Shown here: in pieces, positions 27 through 7,566 of the stretch
How the letters are laid out: every line of letters starts with the position of its first letter
How positions within the stretch are numbered: the first letter of the stretch is position 1
From: a virus
Length of the DNA stretch: 33,008 bases
Virus record (IMG/VR): IMGVR_UViG_3300047560_001896
Location: 1-33,008 of that record
Direction: 5' to 3' (one strand)
Translations under genes and position numbers: made by a program
Notes under the pieces: generated by a model
What the model was told of the DNA's origin: nothing
Database searches by the model: none
Seen by the model: the letters and a program-made list of their open reading frames with translations, nothing else

Positions 27-101
27 ACCCCGTTAGTATAGTGGAAAATACTCTAGGCTACGAACTTAGGGACGGTGGTTCGATTCCATCACGGGGTGCC
101 A
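27..101 (+). tRNA. tRNA-Arg (anticodon ACG)
   Basis: A full cloverleaf is visible: acceptor stem ACCCCGT/ACGGGGT is a perfect 7 bp, D stem GTAT/ATAC, anticodon loop CTACGAA with ACG at 60-62, T loop TTCGATT, discriminator G and an encoded CCA. The ACG anticodon would be read as inosine-CG if the host deaminase acts on it. It is the first gene of the tRNA island and an early-type promoter follows 12 bases after it. Confidence 0.93.
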
Positions 102-113
102 GACAAATAATAG

Positions 114-142
114 TGTACAACGAATTATTTTTGTGGTATAAT
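114..142 (+). promoter_or_regulatory. early-type promoter of the giant RNA
   Basis: TGTACA at 114-119 and TATAAT at 137-142 are separated by 17 bases, matching the phage-wide promoter form. The predicted start is near 149, with no open reading frame behind it, so the promoter appears to serve a non-coding RNA. Confidence 0.8.
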
Positions 143-598
143 ATAAGTTAATGGCAGCATGATGTCATTAGGATAAGTGTAGCGATACACCCAAAGCTGG
201 AAAGCCTACATACCAGCGCTAGTAATAGTCCATTCATGCAAGCATGCTTGGGCCCGTGAGGGTCTCTTCACTAATAAGACTGGTGGAGATAACAATGAAG
301 CAAGTGTTGTGGAAAGAATGTTCACTTAAAGGCTTGAGTCGAAAGACGAGAGGAACCTAAGTGGATAGAGACCAACAGGTGGTGCTGTGGCTCACAACTA
401 ACCAACTTGTCAATTGGTACGAGAAAGTGTAGTGTTATATTTCGAAGGGTCGCTCCTAAGAGGTGTAGCGCAGTATTAATGGTTAGTGGCGGGTACGCGA
501 AAGCCGAGACCCCGACACCGATCGTGAAATACGTCTGAGTAGCCCGCGAGGCAAAAGGAACATGGTGTGTTGTATTTTGTATCTAACAAGATATGAAG

Positions 599-720
599 CA
601 ACTGAGGCAGCACATCATAGTAGGTTAATGTAGATCAATGGTAGATCGTCTGACTTTTAATCAGAATGCTGTCGGTTCAAATCCGATCATTTAAACAAAA
701 CGCAAAGACTGCCTCAGTTG
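599..720 (+). repeat. 12-bp inverted repeat flanking the embedded tRNA
   Basis: CAACTGAGGCAG at 599-610 is exactly complementary to CTGCCTCAGTTG at 709-720. The two arms are 98 bases apart and contain only the tRNA-Lys and short linkers. This suggests a stem that presents the tRNA or is cut by a double-strand RNase. Confidence 0.85.
624..695 (+). tRNA. tRNA-Lys (TTT) embedded in the giant RNA
   Basis: D stem GATC/GATC with loop AATGGTA, perfect anticodon stem TCTGA/TCAGA with loop CTTTTAA, T arm GTCGG-TTCAAAT-CCGAT. The acceptor stem GTTAATG/CATTTAA is weak, with two of seven positions unpaired (1-72 and 3-70), and CCA is not encoded. Inverted repeats at 599-610 and 709-720 (12 of 12 bp) enclose it, so it sits at the tip of a helix of a larger RNA. 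A second, better-formed tRNA-Lys lies at 2477. It may be a working tRNA cut out of the precursor or a structural tRNA-like domain. Confidence 0.75.
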
Positions 721-1068
721 ATTGTGAAAATCATCTAACGCTCGAGTCGTAAGACAATCGAGTCCGATGGATCCCGCAAGGTGAAGTTGGTTTGTACAAT
801 GAATTTCGTAATGGTTTAGCGACCGTGAATTGCTCGCAAGGCAAATGTAAAGAATTGTGTAGAGTAACAATCAATGATAAGTCTAGTGCCTGACTTTCAA
901 AACGGCGATGATGTTGAAGTACAGTAATACCGCAAGGGTTATTGTGGATGTCTAGAGAAGAGTTGCTCGCAAGGTGGCTTATAATGCTAGAAGCTTCAAC
1001 GCAGAGGGTGTAATCTCAGCCCTCTACATATTAAAGTACATTCGATGAGTGTATTTCAATATGTGATT

Positions 1069-1143
1069 GGACCAATAGCTTAATGGTAAAGCAGTCGACT
1101 CATAATCGACCGAGTCTTGGTTCAATTCCAAGTTGGCCCACCA
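1069..1143 (+). tRNA. tRNA with CAT anticodon (Met or Ile2)
   Basis: Acceptor GGACCAA/TTGGCCC has one A-C mismatch at the third pair. D stem GCTT/AAGC, anticodon stem GTCGA/TCGAC with loop CTCATAA, T arm CTTGG-TTCAATT-CCAAG, discriminator A and an encoded CCA. The paired first position is not the initiator type, so this is elongator Met or, if C34 is converted to lysidine, Ile reading AUA. The sequence does not decide between them. Confidence 0.9.
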
Positions 1144-1192: not shown

Positions 1193-1777
1193 ATGCAAGT
1201 AAATCTCCGTAAAGCAAACGCAATCCAATCTGAAATCACTAAAGCAATTGCTGGTGTGAAGGTTGAAGGTACATTGACAGTGAATGAGTTCACTCTTGAT
1301 TTGAATAATGCAATCGATAAAGCACGCACTGATTTTATTGGTGCAATCACTCGTAAGACTGCATTGAATGCAGCTCTCTATGAGATCCGTAAACAAGTTG
1401 CAGTTGCTAATGCATCTGTTGGTATCAACGATGTGTTGAATGAAGTTAACTTGTTAGAAGCAAAAATGGGTATTCTTGGTCTTGCAGCTAATGCACAACC
1501 AGCTAAGGGTTTCGATGAAATCCATGGTCGTATCCAAAAGATTAAGTCTACAGTGACAACTGATAATTCACGTTTGGCATTGTATGGCGAACGTTATAAC
1601 AACGTTGAGTCTCCAGTTTTGACTCAAGCACAAATTGATGCATACAAAGATGAAGTGAAGAATCTCAAGCGTATTCGTCAAGGTTTGCAAGATAAACTGT
1701 TGACATTGAATGTTAGCAATTATATCAACCTTCCACAGGATGTGTTGAATATCTTGCAAGCAGAAGGTATTCTGTAA
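1193..1777 (+). CDS. hypothetical helical protein (194 aa)
   Basis: I do not recognise this protein. It is a soluble, mainly helical protein with several amphipathic stretches (for example around residues 70-95 and 140-170) and no signal peptide or membrane segment. The start is well set: an AAGGAA ribosome site at 1181 lies about 6 bases before the ATG and an early-type promoter precedes it. It stands alone inside the RNA island, between tRNA-Met and a second non-coding structured region, so a role in RNA binding or processing is possible but unsupported by any motif. Confidence 0.85.
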   Translation: MQVNLRKANAIQSEITKAIAGVKVEGTLTVNEFTLDLNNAIDKARTDFIGAITRKTALNAALYEIRKQVAVANASVGINDVLNEVNLLEAKMGILGLAANAQPAKGFDEIHGRIQKIKSTVTTDNSRLALYGERYNNVESPVLTQAQIDAYKDEVKNLKRIRQGLQDKLLTLNVSNYINLPQDVLNILQAEGIL

Positions 1778-2117
1778 AGTTTAGAGGATAGCAAGGATAG
1801 GAAGTTAGTTAGGTGAGCGCAAAAGTATAAACGTCTTGAAAACGCTTAATACTCCAATTAAATTGGTTCTGACGGACTAATTTGACTAAACTCGGCCGAA
1901 TATGGTTGGTTGCTCCTAGCATACCCCGACGCAAGTCACTTGTTTATTGCTACTAGGATTCTATAACTTTGTGGCCTGTCTCTTGTATTTTGCAAATTGC
2001 AGGTTGCTGTGCGACTCGTCGCTAATGGAATTGAATTGTTATCCTCACCTAATGCGTCGCGGCTAATCTCAGGAACTCCCGTACACCTGAGTTAAAATAA
2101 CAAAAAAACGGGGCCAT
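1778..2117 (+). ncRNA. second structured RNA region
   Basis: This 340-base gap between a gene and tRNA-Gly holds no gene. GAGGATAGCAA (1784-1794) pairs over 11 bp with 2036-2046. TTAGGTGAG (1809-1817) pairs with CTCACCTAA (2044-2052), sharing three bases with the first helix, so the two either exclude each other or form a pseudoknot. Local hairpins include a GAC-GCAA-GTC stem at 1928-1937 inside a 1914-1919/1953-1958 helix, and CTCAGG/CCTGAG at 2068-2091. No promoter or T-rich terminator is evident, so it may be read through from 1144. Confidence 0.6.
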
Positions 2118-2476: not shown

Positions 2477-2551
2477 GGGGGTATAACTTAACGGCTAAAG
2501 TATCTGGCTTTTAACCAGGAAATCAGAGTTCGATTCTCTGTGCCCCTACCA
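2477..2551 (+). tRNA. tRNA-Lys (TTT), canonical copy
   Basis: Acceptor GGGGGTA/TGCCCCT with G-T wobbles at the first and sixth pairs, D stem ACTT/AAGT, anticodon stem TCTGG/CCAGG with loop CTTTTAA (anticodon 2510-2512), T arm CAGAG-TTCGATT-CTCTG, discriminator A, encoded CCA. Its ACCA end (2548-2551) is also the first base-paired segment of the next structured RNA, so folding of that element could compete with 3' processing. Confidence 0.92.
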
Positions 2552-3068: not shown

Positions 3069-3142
3069 GCCTCTTTAGTTTAAAAGTAGAACACCCTCCT
3101 TACAAGTGGGATACGGCGGAGCGTTACCGTCAAGAGGTACCA
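3069..3142 (+). tRNA. tRNA-Val (TAC) with unusual T loop
   Basis: Acceptor GCCTCTT/AAGAGGT (one G-T pair), D stem GTTT/GAAC, anticodon stem CCCTC/GTGGG with loop CTTACAA (anticodon 3101-3103), T stem GGCGG/CCGTC, discriminator A and encoded CCA. The T loop reads AGCGTTA instead of the near-universal TTCRANY, losing T54, T55 and A58. Confidence 0.82.
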
Positions 3143-3150
3143 AGTTTAGT

Positions 3151-3223
3151 TCCTGATGTGGTGTAAGTGGTATGCACACAATAGCGCGCAGAGGTGGCAG
3201 TTCGATTCTGTCCGCAGGAGCCA
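3151..3223 (+). tRNA. tRNA-like gene, anticodon not assignable
   Basis: The 3' half is tRNA-like: GGCAG-TTCGATT-CTGTC T arm, CGCAGGA acceptor strand, discriminator G and CCA. The 5' TCCTG pairs with CAGGA and a GTGT/GCAC D-like arm exists. The middle (3177-3195) does not form a 5-bp anticodon stem with a 7-base loop containing T33. It may be a decayed tRNA (the TCC start, GGA end and G73 recall tRNA-Asn) or a tRNA mimic. Confidence 0.5.
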
Positions 3224-6915: not shown

Positions 6916-7203
6916 ATGTCAAAAATAGCATTAATCGGGGATAGTACGACAGATGGTGGAACTCTTACACAGAATCCACCGTGTCATGCAAAAATAGGTG
7001 GTGTTGAAATAGCATTGGATCAATGTCATGTCACACCGCACTTGACAAACTTACCTATGAGTACTAAACACCCCGATCAATCGGCAAATGTGGTTACCGC
7101 TTCAGGTAAAGTAACCATAAAAGGTATAAAGGTTGTAATGAATAATGATGTAGCCGCATGCGGTGCTGCTGTAGTAGCTACATCAAAGGCATCTACAGCA
7201 TAA
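6916..7203 (+). CDS. PAAR-domain spike-tip protein
   Basis: A 95-residue protein of the PAAR family: glycine-rich short beta repeats, conserved His and Cys residues (PPCHAKIGG, CHVTPH, NNDVAACGAA) that bind the metal at the point of the spike. In T4-like phages such a protein caps the central tail spike and pierces the outer membrane. AAGGAT directly precedes the ATG. The stop codon is followed at once by the acceptor piece of the tmRNA. Confidence 0.86.
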   Translation: MSKIALIGDSTTDGGTLTQNPPCHAKIGGVEIALDQCHVTPHLTNLPMSTKHPDQSANVVTASGKVTIKGIKVVMNNDVAACGAAVVATSKASTA

Positions 7204-7272
7204 AAGAATTGTTGTAATCCCTTCAACGCGAAGGACTTCTGGACGCGGGTTCGACTCCCGCCATCTCCACCA
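7204..7272 (+). ncRNA. ssrA: tmRNA acceptor piece (permuted gene, 3' half first)
   Basis: This is the 3' end of a tmRNA: T arm GCGGG-TTCGACT-CCCGC (7245-7261), acceptor strand CATCTCC (7262-7268), discriminator A and encoded CCA (7270-7272). The acceptor strand pairs over 7 bp with GGGGATG at 7343-7349, including the G-U at the third pair that also occurs in E. coli tmRNA. A 70-base spacer separates the two pieces, as in circularly permuted tmRNA genes whose precursor is cut to give two RNAs. The 5' end is not certain; CCTTC/GAAGG (near 7219-7234) can form a small hairpin. Confidence 0.88.
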
Positions 7273-7342
7273 AAAGTGTATTAGTGAGGGTCTGTCCCTT
7301 TCAATAGAGATTCCTAAGGAATGCAGCTAATATATTTTTGAT

Positions 7343-7500
7343 GGGGATGCCATGGTTTCGACAGGGGTAGATAGTAGAGACGGCAACACGGTAGGCGATG
7401 ACCGTAAATCAAGCAAATCTCAATAACTGCAAACGATGAGTTATTCGCTATCGCCGCTTAAGGCTAGCTGAGGTAACTATACCTTATTACCAAAAATAGT
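7343..7500 (+). ncRNA. ssrA: tmRNA coding piece, tag ANDELFAIAA
   Basis: GGGGATG (7343-7349) starts the piece and pairs with the acceptor piece; the TTTCGACAGGGG segment matches the tmRNA D-loop region. The resume codon is GCA at 7429 and the frame reads A-N-D-E-L-F-A-I-A-A then TAA (7459-7461). The tag start AND and its hydrophobic AA end are the classic ClpXP-type degron. A 7-bp helix AATAACT/AGTTATT surrounds the first tag codons. ACGGT/ACCGT (7388-7405) has a loop that can pair with ATCGCC (7450-7455), a possible pseudoknot. A terminator follows. Confidence 0.92.
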
Positions 7501-7502
7501 AA

Positions 7503-7526
7503 AGGCTCCTTCGGGAGCCTTTTTTT
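7503..7526 (+). terminator. intrinsic terminator after the tmRNA
   Basis: AGGCTCC-TTCG-GGAGCCT followed by seven T. Confidence 0.93.
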
Positions 7527-7529
7527 ACG

Positions 7530-7537
7530 TATAAATA
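7530..7537 (+). promoter_or_regulatory. T4-type late promoter for the tail fibre
   Basis: TATAAATA, the exact T4 late consensus, sits between the tmRNA terminator and the fibre gene, 29 bases before its ATG. Confidence 0.85.
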
Positions 7538-7566
7538 GAAGTAGATACAACTACACGGGGTGCCAA

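What the first reader, a model, noticed from the sequence alone, without database searches (positions are those of the whole stretch)
149..1025. Giant GNRA-rich RNA with a tRNA inside
A strong early-type promoter at 114-142 leads into about 880 bases without a gene. On the plus strand only, many stems end in GNRA loops (GCGA, GTGA, GAAA, GTAA, GCAA), the mark of a large folded RNA rather than leftover spacer. It carries a tRNA-Lys at the tip of a perfect 12-bp helix. Known giant phage RNAs near tRNAs (GOLLD, ROOL) are of similar size and setting, and some form RNA-only multimers. Whether this belongs to either or is new cannot be told by eye.
Basis: partly seen in the sequence, partly recalled or inferred. 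Interest (0 to 1): 0.92.

Follow-up and report, generated by a model that had tools for sequence, protein, structure and literature searches.

The report
GOLLD RNA carrying an unchargeable tRNA mimic
The stretch encodes a phage RNA of the known cage-forming GOLLD family, and comparison with 91 relatives shows that the 'tRNA' inside it is not a working tRNA but a conserved tRNA look-alike with its amino-acid end taken apart, swapped between phages like a cartridge, which suggests that these RNA cages carry tRNA bait.

Summary
In detail: window 149-1025 (+) is one large structured RNA. It is not an unknown family. Rfam places 562-1022 in GOLLD (RF02032, 187.5 bits, gathering score 150, full model). 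The 5' half is a structured domain: 102 base pairs over 45 homologues, 69 with two-sided changes, 98.4% of cells paired, at most 42% when slid. tRNAs in GOLLD linkers were already reported. The '12-bp helix' is really a 7-bp covarying long-range (pseudoknot-type) helix that clamps the linker.

What seems new is the linker. In 92 distinct phage GOLLDs the embedded 'tRNA' keeps its D, anticodon and T arms and four inner acceptor pairs. The three outer acceptor pairs are at chance, and CCA is never encoded (0/92, against 88% of 1,253 free tRNAs in the same DNA). These modules resemble each other, not free tRNAs. 78% of those with 7-nt loops have Lys or Asn anticodons. They are exchanged as cassettes: this GOLLD is 99.5% identical to that of another phage except for the tRNA module (60%).

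I infer, without experiment, that the cage holds an unchargeable tRNA mimic as bait for a host tRNA-recognising factor, perhaps an anticodon nuclease. Structural-module and neutral-insertion readings remain open.

The parts
114..142 (+). sigma-70-like promoter (TGTACA-17-TGnTATAAT) in front of the RNA
   Evidence: same motif at 1144-1172
149..1025 (+). GOLLD RNA, whole (5' domain + 3' domain); ends approximate
149..561 (+). [quoted passage not shown]
   Evidence: 45-sequence alignment: 102 pairs, 69 with two-sided changes
562..1022 (+). conserved 3' domain, Rfam GOLLD RF02032 positions 1-416
   Evidence: 187.5 bits, gathering 150
604..610 (+). pseudoknot strand 1 (GAGGCAG) at the base of the linker
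   Evidence: pairs with 709-715; 100% of 92 homologues paired, 29 sequence variants of the two strands with their flanks
709..715 (+). pseudoknot strand 2 (CTGCCTC)
620..626 (+). conserved leader GTAGGTT at which the tRNA module begins
624..696 (+). tRNA-like module, Lys(TTT) anticodon; 2 mismatches in the outer acceptor stem, no CCA
628..700 (+). exchanged cassette: 60% identical to L123 although both flanks are 99.4-99.7% identical
27..101 (+). free tRNA-Arg(ACG) upstream, full acceptor
1069..1143 (+). free tRNA-Met(CAT) downstream, CCA encoded
2477..2551 (+). free tRNA-Lys(TTT), full 7-bp acceptor and CCA: the embedded copy is redundant as a tRNA

Best explanation
The locus encodes a GOLLD RNA (shown). 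By homology to the solved GOLLD it should assemble into a protein-free cage, with the linker between the two strands of a covarying helix on the inside (established for env-38 in PMC12286853, inferred here). In this subgroup the linker is not a free strand and not a tRNA gene. It is a conserved tRNA-like domain: D, anticodon and T arms plus a four-pair stump of the acceptor stem, grafted between a conserved GUAGGUU leader and an A-rich trailer (shown). It cannot be charged or decode in its genomic form: the outer acceptor pairs are random and CCA is absent (pairing and CCA shown, inability inferred). The module is kept by selection and exchanged whole between GOLLDs (shown). Most likely it is interchangeable bait: many copies of a tRNA anticodon arm, mostly of the Lys/Asn type, presented by the cage to bind, and perhaps trap, a host factor that attacks or reads tRNAs such as an anticodon nuclease. 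It would thereby protect the phage's own tRNA array (inferred).
For: GOLLD identity. Structured 5' domain. Module statistics, 92 distinct embedded tRNAs: D, anticodon and T stems paired 91-100%; pairs 4:69 to 7:66 paired 89-96%; pairs 1:72, 2:71, 3:70 paired 45/41/48% against 50/44/50% by chance and 91-96% in free tRNAs of the same DNA. CCA 0/92 against 88% of 1,253 (Fisher p about 1e-77). All 7 acceptor pairs formed in 9/92 against 83%. Own lineage: most embedded modules are 80-100% identical to another embedded one; none exceeds 77% to any free tRNA; the nearest free tRNA has the same anticodon in only 11/92. Cassette exchange: window and L123 are 99.5% identical over the GOLLD, 60% in the module; L194/L147 97% against 58%. 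Near-identical modules also sit on backbones only 68-77% alike. Anticodons: GTT 36, TTT 20, CTT 8, TCT 4, TGT 3 of 82 with 7-nt loops. PARIS/AriB targets tRNA-Lys(UUU), Thr(UGU) and Asn(GUU) (PMC12409363). PrrC targets tRNA-Lys and is countered by phage tRNA-Lys (PMC11555353). Redundancy: window, L123 and L124 each hold a free tRNA of the same anticodon. Loci with tRNA-linker GOLLDs carry 1.43 tRNAs/kb against 0.17 for other GOLLD loci.
Against: No expression, binding or phenotype data. A closed cage may hide the module. About 11% of modules (10 of 92) have 6-, 8- or 9-nt anticodon loops. The Lys/Asn bias comes largely from one clade of 59. Position 39, which E. coli AriB needs as U, is a purine in 91% of embedded NUU modules against 14% of free ones, so most would not be AriB substrates, though they could still bind. 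Many GOLLDs have no tRNA-like linker, so bait cannot be the only role of the family. A published GOLLD was dispensable for phage production (cited in PMC7567579).
Confidence: 0.45

Rival explanations
1. Structural module: the tRNA-like fold is a compact plug or an inter-chain contact inside the cage, for example through its elbow or through self-complementary anticodon loops (UUAA at positions 35-38), and has no tRNA-related partner.
For: Conserved fold and fixed position between the covarying helix strands. UUAA in the three commonest loops. The published cage uses palindromic kissing loops (PMC12286853).
Against: Whole modules of 58-60% identity replace each other on 97-99.5% identical backbones. 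Loops without UUAA and of other lengths occur. Many GOLLDs do without it.
Confidence: 0.27
2. Neutral insertion: tRNA pieces enter a permissive loop by recombination in tRNA-rich phage regions, and the acceptor decays because nothing needs it.
For: tRNA-rich surroundings, cassette turnover, variable anticodons.
Against: D, anticodon and T stems are held at 91-100% by compensatory change while only the outer acceptor pairs and CCA are lost, and in nearly all members. Modules are not close to any free tRNA. Fixed leader and trailer.
Confidence: 0.2
3. A genuine tRNA-Lys gene that is cut out of the GOLLD transcript and used in translation.
For: ARAGORN and Rfam call it a tRNA (62.4 bits). Canonical anticodon loop CUUUUAA.
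Against: Outer acceptor pairs at chance and no CCA in 92 members. Redundant with the free tRNA-Lys(TTT) at 2477. Ser/Leu-type anticodons sit on bodies with a short variable loop (L216; Mesorhizobium phage L286). The tRNA-like sequence inside the GOLLD of one mycobacterium was called a pseudo-tRNA and no separate expression was seen (PMC6582537).
Confidence: 0.08

Closest known systems
GOLLD RNA (Rfam RF02032; structure of env-38, PMC12286853)
   Same: Full-length match of the 3' domain above the curated cut-off, a structured 5' domain of about 410 nt, total about 875 nt, phage location within a tRNA array, linker at the same place.
   Different: The linker holds a tRNA-like module instead of the roughly 42-nt disordered strand of env-38. 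tRNAs in GOLLD linkers were already mentioned; that they lack the acceptor end as a rule and are exchanged as cassettes I did not find in the papers I could read.
Pseudo-tRNA in a mycobacterial GOLLD (PMC6582537)
   Same: tRNA-like sequence inside GOLLD, within a tRNA cluster, not seen as a separate transcript.
   Different: There a single case described as a pseudogene. Here a conserved module over 92 phage sequences, with arms under selection.
ROOL RNA
   Same: Giant phage RNA near tRNAs, cage-forming, linker inside (PMC12286853).
   Different: Unrelated sequence and structure; no Rfam ROOL match here.
Phage tRNAs that counter tRNA-cutting defences (T5 against PARIS, PMC12409363; phage tRNA-Lys against PrrC, PMC11555353)
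   Same: Phage-made tRNA bodies with Lys/Asn/Thr anticodons.
   Different: Those are complete, usable replacement tRNAs. This module cannot be charged as encoded and is part of a large RNA.

Membership tests
GOLLD RNA (RF02032) | Covariance-model score above the curated cut-off over the conserved 3' region | tested here: met
   187.5 bits against 150, model 1-416 complete
GOLLD RNA (RF02032) | Less conserved but structured 5' region, total length often above 800 nt | tested here: met
   147-560: 102 pairs, 69 with two-sided changes, 98.4% paired; about 875 nt in all
GOLLD RNA (RF02032) | Phage or prophage location near tRNA genes | tested here: met
   Virus record, tRNA genes on both sides
GOLLD RNA (RF02032) | Homo-oligomeric RNA cage | not testable with these tools
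   Shown for env-38 (PMC12286853)
GOLLD RNA (RF02032) | Transcript accumulates during phage lysis | not testable with these tools
   No RNA data; a promoter-like site is present
ROOL RNA | Rfam ROOL model match | tested here: not met
   No match at gathering score or at E<=1
functional tRNA | Cloverleaf with conserved D, anticodon and T arms | tested here: met
   Rfam tRNA 62.4 bits; arms 91-100% paired in the family
functional tRNA | Seven-pair acceptor stem | tested here: not met
   G1.A72 and U3.U70 here; outer three pairs at chance in 92 members
functional tRNA | CCA encoded, as in most other tRNAs of these phages | tested here: not met
   0/92 against 88% of free tRNAs; CCA added after processing not excluded
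functional tRNA | Excised and aminoacylated in the cell | not testable with these tools
   needs RNA from infected cells

The most novel reading that the evidence does not exclude
A subgroup of phage GOLLD cages are interchangeable-bait devices: each assembled cage presents many copies of an unchargeable tRNA mimic whose cassette is swapped by recombination to match the host's tRNA-cutting defences. This would be a concrete biological role for an RNA-only cage and a new kind of anti-defence element.
Probability: 0.3. Interest if true: 0.92.

Novelty: new variant of a known kind. Interest (0 to 1): 0.6.

Why it matters
GOLLD function has been unknown since its discovery, and the 2025 structures added only that it forms an empty cage with the linker inside. 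If the linker of a whole subgroup is a selected, swappable, unchargeable tRNA mimic, the cage has an identifiable cargo and the question becomes testable in cultured phages (DSS3_MAL1, Phaeobacter MD18, Mesorhizobium Cp1R7A-A1, and DSS3P8 with a shortened linker). It also means that annotation pipelines record pseudo-tRNAs as phage tRNA genes (tRNA-Arg in DSS3_MAL1 and MD18, tRNA-Leu in Cp1R7A-A1), which distorts codon-usage analyses of phage tRNAs.

Tried and rejected
(1) An unknown giant RNA family: rejected, Rfam GOLLD match. (2) A conserved pairing of the leader UAGGUU (621-626) with AACCUA (354-359): present in window, L123, L124 and a few others, absent in most of 92, rejected. (3) The full 12-bp helix: only 7 bp supported. 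(4) A genome-contig scan for the same arrangement: 18 hits, of which by inspection only L246 (Pseudaminobacter soli) is a GOLLD, confirmed by Rfam; the rest look like chance. (5) AriB as the specific target: the anticodon set fits, but U39 is missing in most modules, so I name the class of factor, not the enzyme. (6) GOLLD next to tmRNA as a rule: true in the roseophages, but only 3 of 91 tRNA-linker loci hold a tmRNA in the fetched DNA. (7) Stand-alone folding of the module gives no significant cloverleaf (z = -0.09); the comparative evidence carries the claim. (8) A first regex for linkers of the marine GOLLDs failed and was replaced by reading the sequences. (9) The T-loop scan fixes G53-T54-T55-C56, A58 and C61, so those columns are not independent evidence; a leader-based scan without that condition again gave tRNA-like modules in 96 of 97 by eye (87 with the strict T-loop).

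Full report
OBSERVATION. Window 149-1025 (+) has no ORF of 60 aa or more before 1024 on either strand, a promoter-like site at 114-142, a tRNA-Lys(TTT) prediction at 624-696 and a stable fold (z -2.3). GNRA loops on perfect stems of at least 3 bp number 6 on the plus strand (2.3 expected, p = 0.03) and 0 on the minus strand. So the description holds, though the GNRA count alone would be weak.

IDENTITY. Rfam places 562-1022 in GOLLD at 187.5 bits (cut-off 150) over the complete model. ROOL does not match. The model covers only the 3' domain. For the 5' half I aligned 147-560 with 44 relatives from phage contigs. RNAalifold gives 102 pairs; 98.4% of cells pair, 69 pairs have two-sided changes and 0 of 500 shuffles reach either value, while slid controls pair at most 42%. 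The element is therefore a complete, two-domain GOLLD RNA in a T4-like phage fragment (gp32-like SSB; gp59-like loader). Kretsch et al. (PMC12286853) solved a GOLLD as a 14-mer cage with 5' caps and 3' rings and a disordered linker inside, and noted that tRNAs are sometimes present in the linker. The tRNA inside GOLLD is thus not new in itself.

THE HELIX. The perfect 12-bp complement 599-610/709-720 was tested in 92 homologues. Seven pairs, 604-610 with 709-715, form in 100% of them with extensive two-sided change (one pair is UA 40, GC 35, AU 13, CG 3; chance 43%). The next two pairs are at chance, and Rfam assigns 598-602 and 717-725 to other helices. The same long-range helix is visible by eye in GOLLDs without a tRNA. 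It clamps the base of the linker.

THE MODULE IS NOT A TRNA. A pattern scan of IMG/VR for GOLLD flanks around a T-loop gave 113 contig stretches, 92 distinct with the window. Parsed to tRNA positions, they keep D, anticodon and T stems (91-100% paired) and acceptor pairs 4:69 to 7:66 (89-96%), but pairs 1:72, 2:71 and 3:70 are at chance (45/41/48% against 50/44/50% by column shuffling), where free tRNAs in the same DNA have 91-96%. CCA is encoded in 0 of 92 against 88% of 1,253 free tRNAs. ARAGORN's own structures, read independently, show the same. A scan on the leader alone, without the T-loop condition, gave 97 distinct linkers, 87 with a strict T-loop and, by eye, all but one of the rest tRNA-like. 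The window's own module has G1.A72, U3.U70 and no CCA, while a complete tRNA-Lys(TTT) with CCA lies at 2477-2551, so the module is redundant as a tRNA. In Mesorhizobium phage Cp1R7A-A1 the embedded 'tRNA-Leu' has a short variable loop that a genuine bacterial tRNA-Leu would not have (class rule from general knowledge).

LINEAGE AND EXCHANGE. Most modules are 80-100% identical to another module, but none exceeds 77% to any free tRNA, and the nearest free tRNA shares the anticodon in only 11 of 92. They are an old lineage, not fresh captures. Yet they move: window and L123 are 99.4% identical over 149-627 and 99.7% over 701-1025, but 60% in 628-700, Lys(TTT) in one and Asn(GTT) in the other. L194 and L147 show the same (97.5%, 58%, 96.5%). 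Conversely, modules 95-100% alike sit on backbones of 68-77% identity. The boundaries are the conserved GUAGGUU leader and the A-rich trailer. On a tree of the backbone, acceptor positions 1-3 change 28-33 times, positions 4-7 15-22 times, loop positions 33, 37 and 38 only 1-4 times, position 34 21 times and positions 35 and 36 7 times each.

ANTICODONS. Of 82 modules with a 7-nt loop, 36 are GTT, 20 TTT, 8 CTT, 4 TCT and 3 TGT. A34 is rare, as in real tRNAs. The bias to Lys/Asn is strong against free tRNAs (71% against 8% with U35U36 over all 92), but much of it comes from one clade of 59. PARIS AriB cuts tRNA-Lys(UUU), Thr(UGU) and Asn(GUU) (PMC12409363), and its authors consider that viral tRNAs may inhibit it by competition. 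PrrC cuts tRNA-Lys and phage tRNA-Lys rescues infection (PMC11555353). The fit is suggestive, not proof: AriB needs U39, which is U in only 9% of NUU modules against 61% of free NUU tRNAs. The window's module, with UAAUC|A, is one of 3 that match the AriB site. So a mimic that binds but is not cut, or a different nuclease, fits better than a simple substrate.

MECHANISM. Shown: a GOLLD RNA; a covarying helix that clamps a linker; an unchargeable tRNA-like module under selection; cassette exchange; a tRNA-rich setting (1.43 against 0.17 tRNAs per kb). Inferred from env-38: the cage and the position of the linker inside it. Inferred only: the module is bait for a host tRNA-recognising factor. 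I give this 0.45; a structural role 0.27; neutral insertion 0.2; a working tRNA 0.08. The identity as GOLLD and the unchargeable nature of the encoded module are close to certain (0.97 and about 0.9).

CONTEXT. The closest relatives by the neighbouring gene are L122 to L125. L123 and L124 have the GOLLD with a module. L122 (167.6 kb contig) and L125 (163.5 kb contig) have none, although L122 keeps tRNA-Arg and the neighbouring gene, so the element appears dispensable to a phage of this kind. Cultured phages with a module-bearing GOLLD are DSS3_MAL1, MD18 and Cp1R7A-A1; DSS3P8 has a GOLLD with a shorter linker. GenBank annotates the modules in the first three as tRNA genes.

LIMITS. No expression or binding data. 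Metagenomic contigs may carry assembly errors, though two independent cassette swaps with exact boundaries make that unlikely as a general cause. About 11% of modules have 6-, 8- or 9-nt anticodon loops, which could blur the register of a few acceptors. Papers behind subscription (the 2009 discovery, the 2020 mycobacterial survey) could not be read, so priority for the acceptor observation is not certain.

Noticed in passing
window 1193-1777 and 1778-2117: Between window and L123 this gene (194 aa, phrog_25230, no Pfam match) and the non-coding stretch behind it are only 63-67% identical, while the DNA on both sides is 98-99%: a second hypervariable island. The gene shares the GOLLD-type promoter.
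   Followed up: partly
window 114-142, 1144-1172, 24487: Shared promoter motif TACAACGAA...(TG)nTATAAT, probably a phage promoter class.
   Followed up: partly
window 7158-7552: Phage-encoded tmRNA matching the beta_tmRNA and permuted tmRNA models, tag ANDELFAIAA by ARAGORN; also in L123. In DSS3_MAL1, MD18 and DSS3P8 an alpha-type permuted tmRNA lies just 3' of the GOLLD.
   Followed up: partly
L285 (Roseobacter phage DSS3P8) about 815-880; L278: GOLLD linkers that seem to keep only a D-arm-like hairpin and a 5-bp/7-nt anticodon-arm-like hairpin (UUUAGGA, as in tRNA-Leu UAG) and no T arm. If real, the anticodon arm is the part that matters. RNA folding gives no strong support.
   Followed up: partly
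L122 3397-3639: Natural GOLLD-less version of the locus: tRNA-Arg and the neighbouring gene are present, GOLLD absent from the contig.
   Followed up: yes
window 1780-2117 and 2560-2986: Two further non-coding stretches of about 340 and 430 bases between tRNAs; no Rfam match.
   Followed up: no
window 3140-3222: tRNA-like sequence ending in GGAGCCA without a recognisable anticodon arm, next to tRNA-Val; ARAGORN does not call it.
   Followed up: no
L283, L284, L286: GenBank records annotate the GOLLD linker module as a tRNA gene (Arg, Arg, Leu); GOLLD itself is not annotated.
   Followed up: yes
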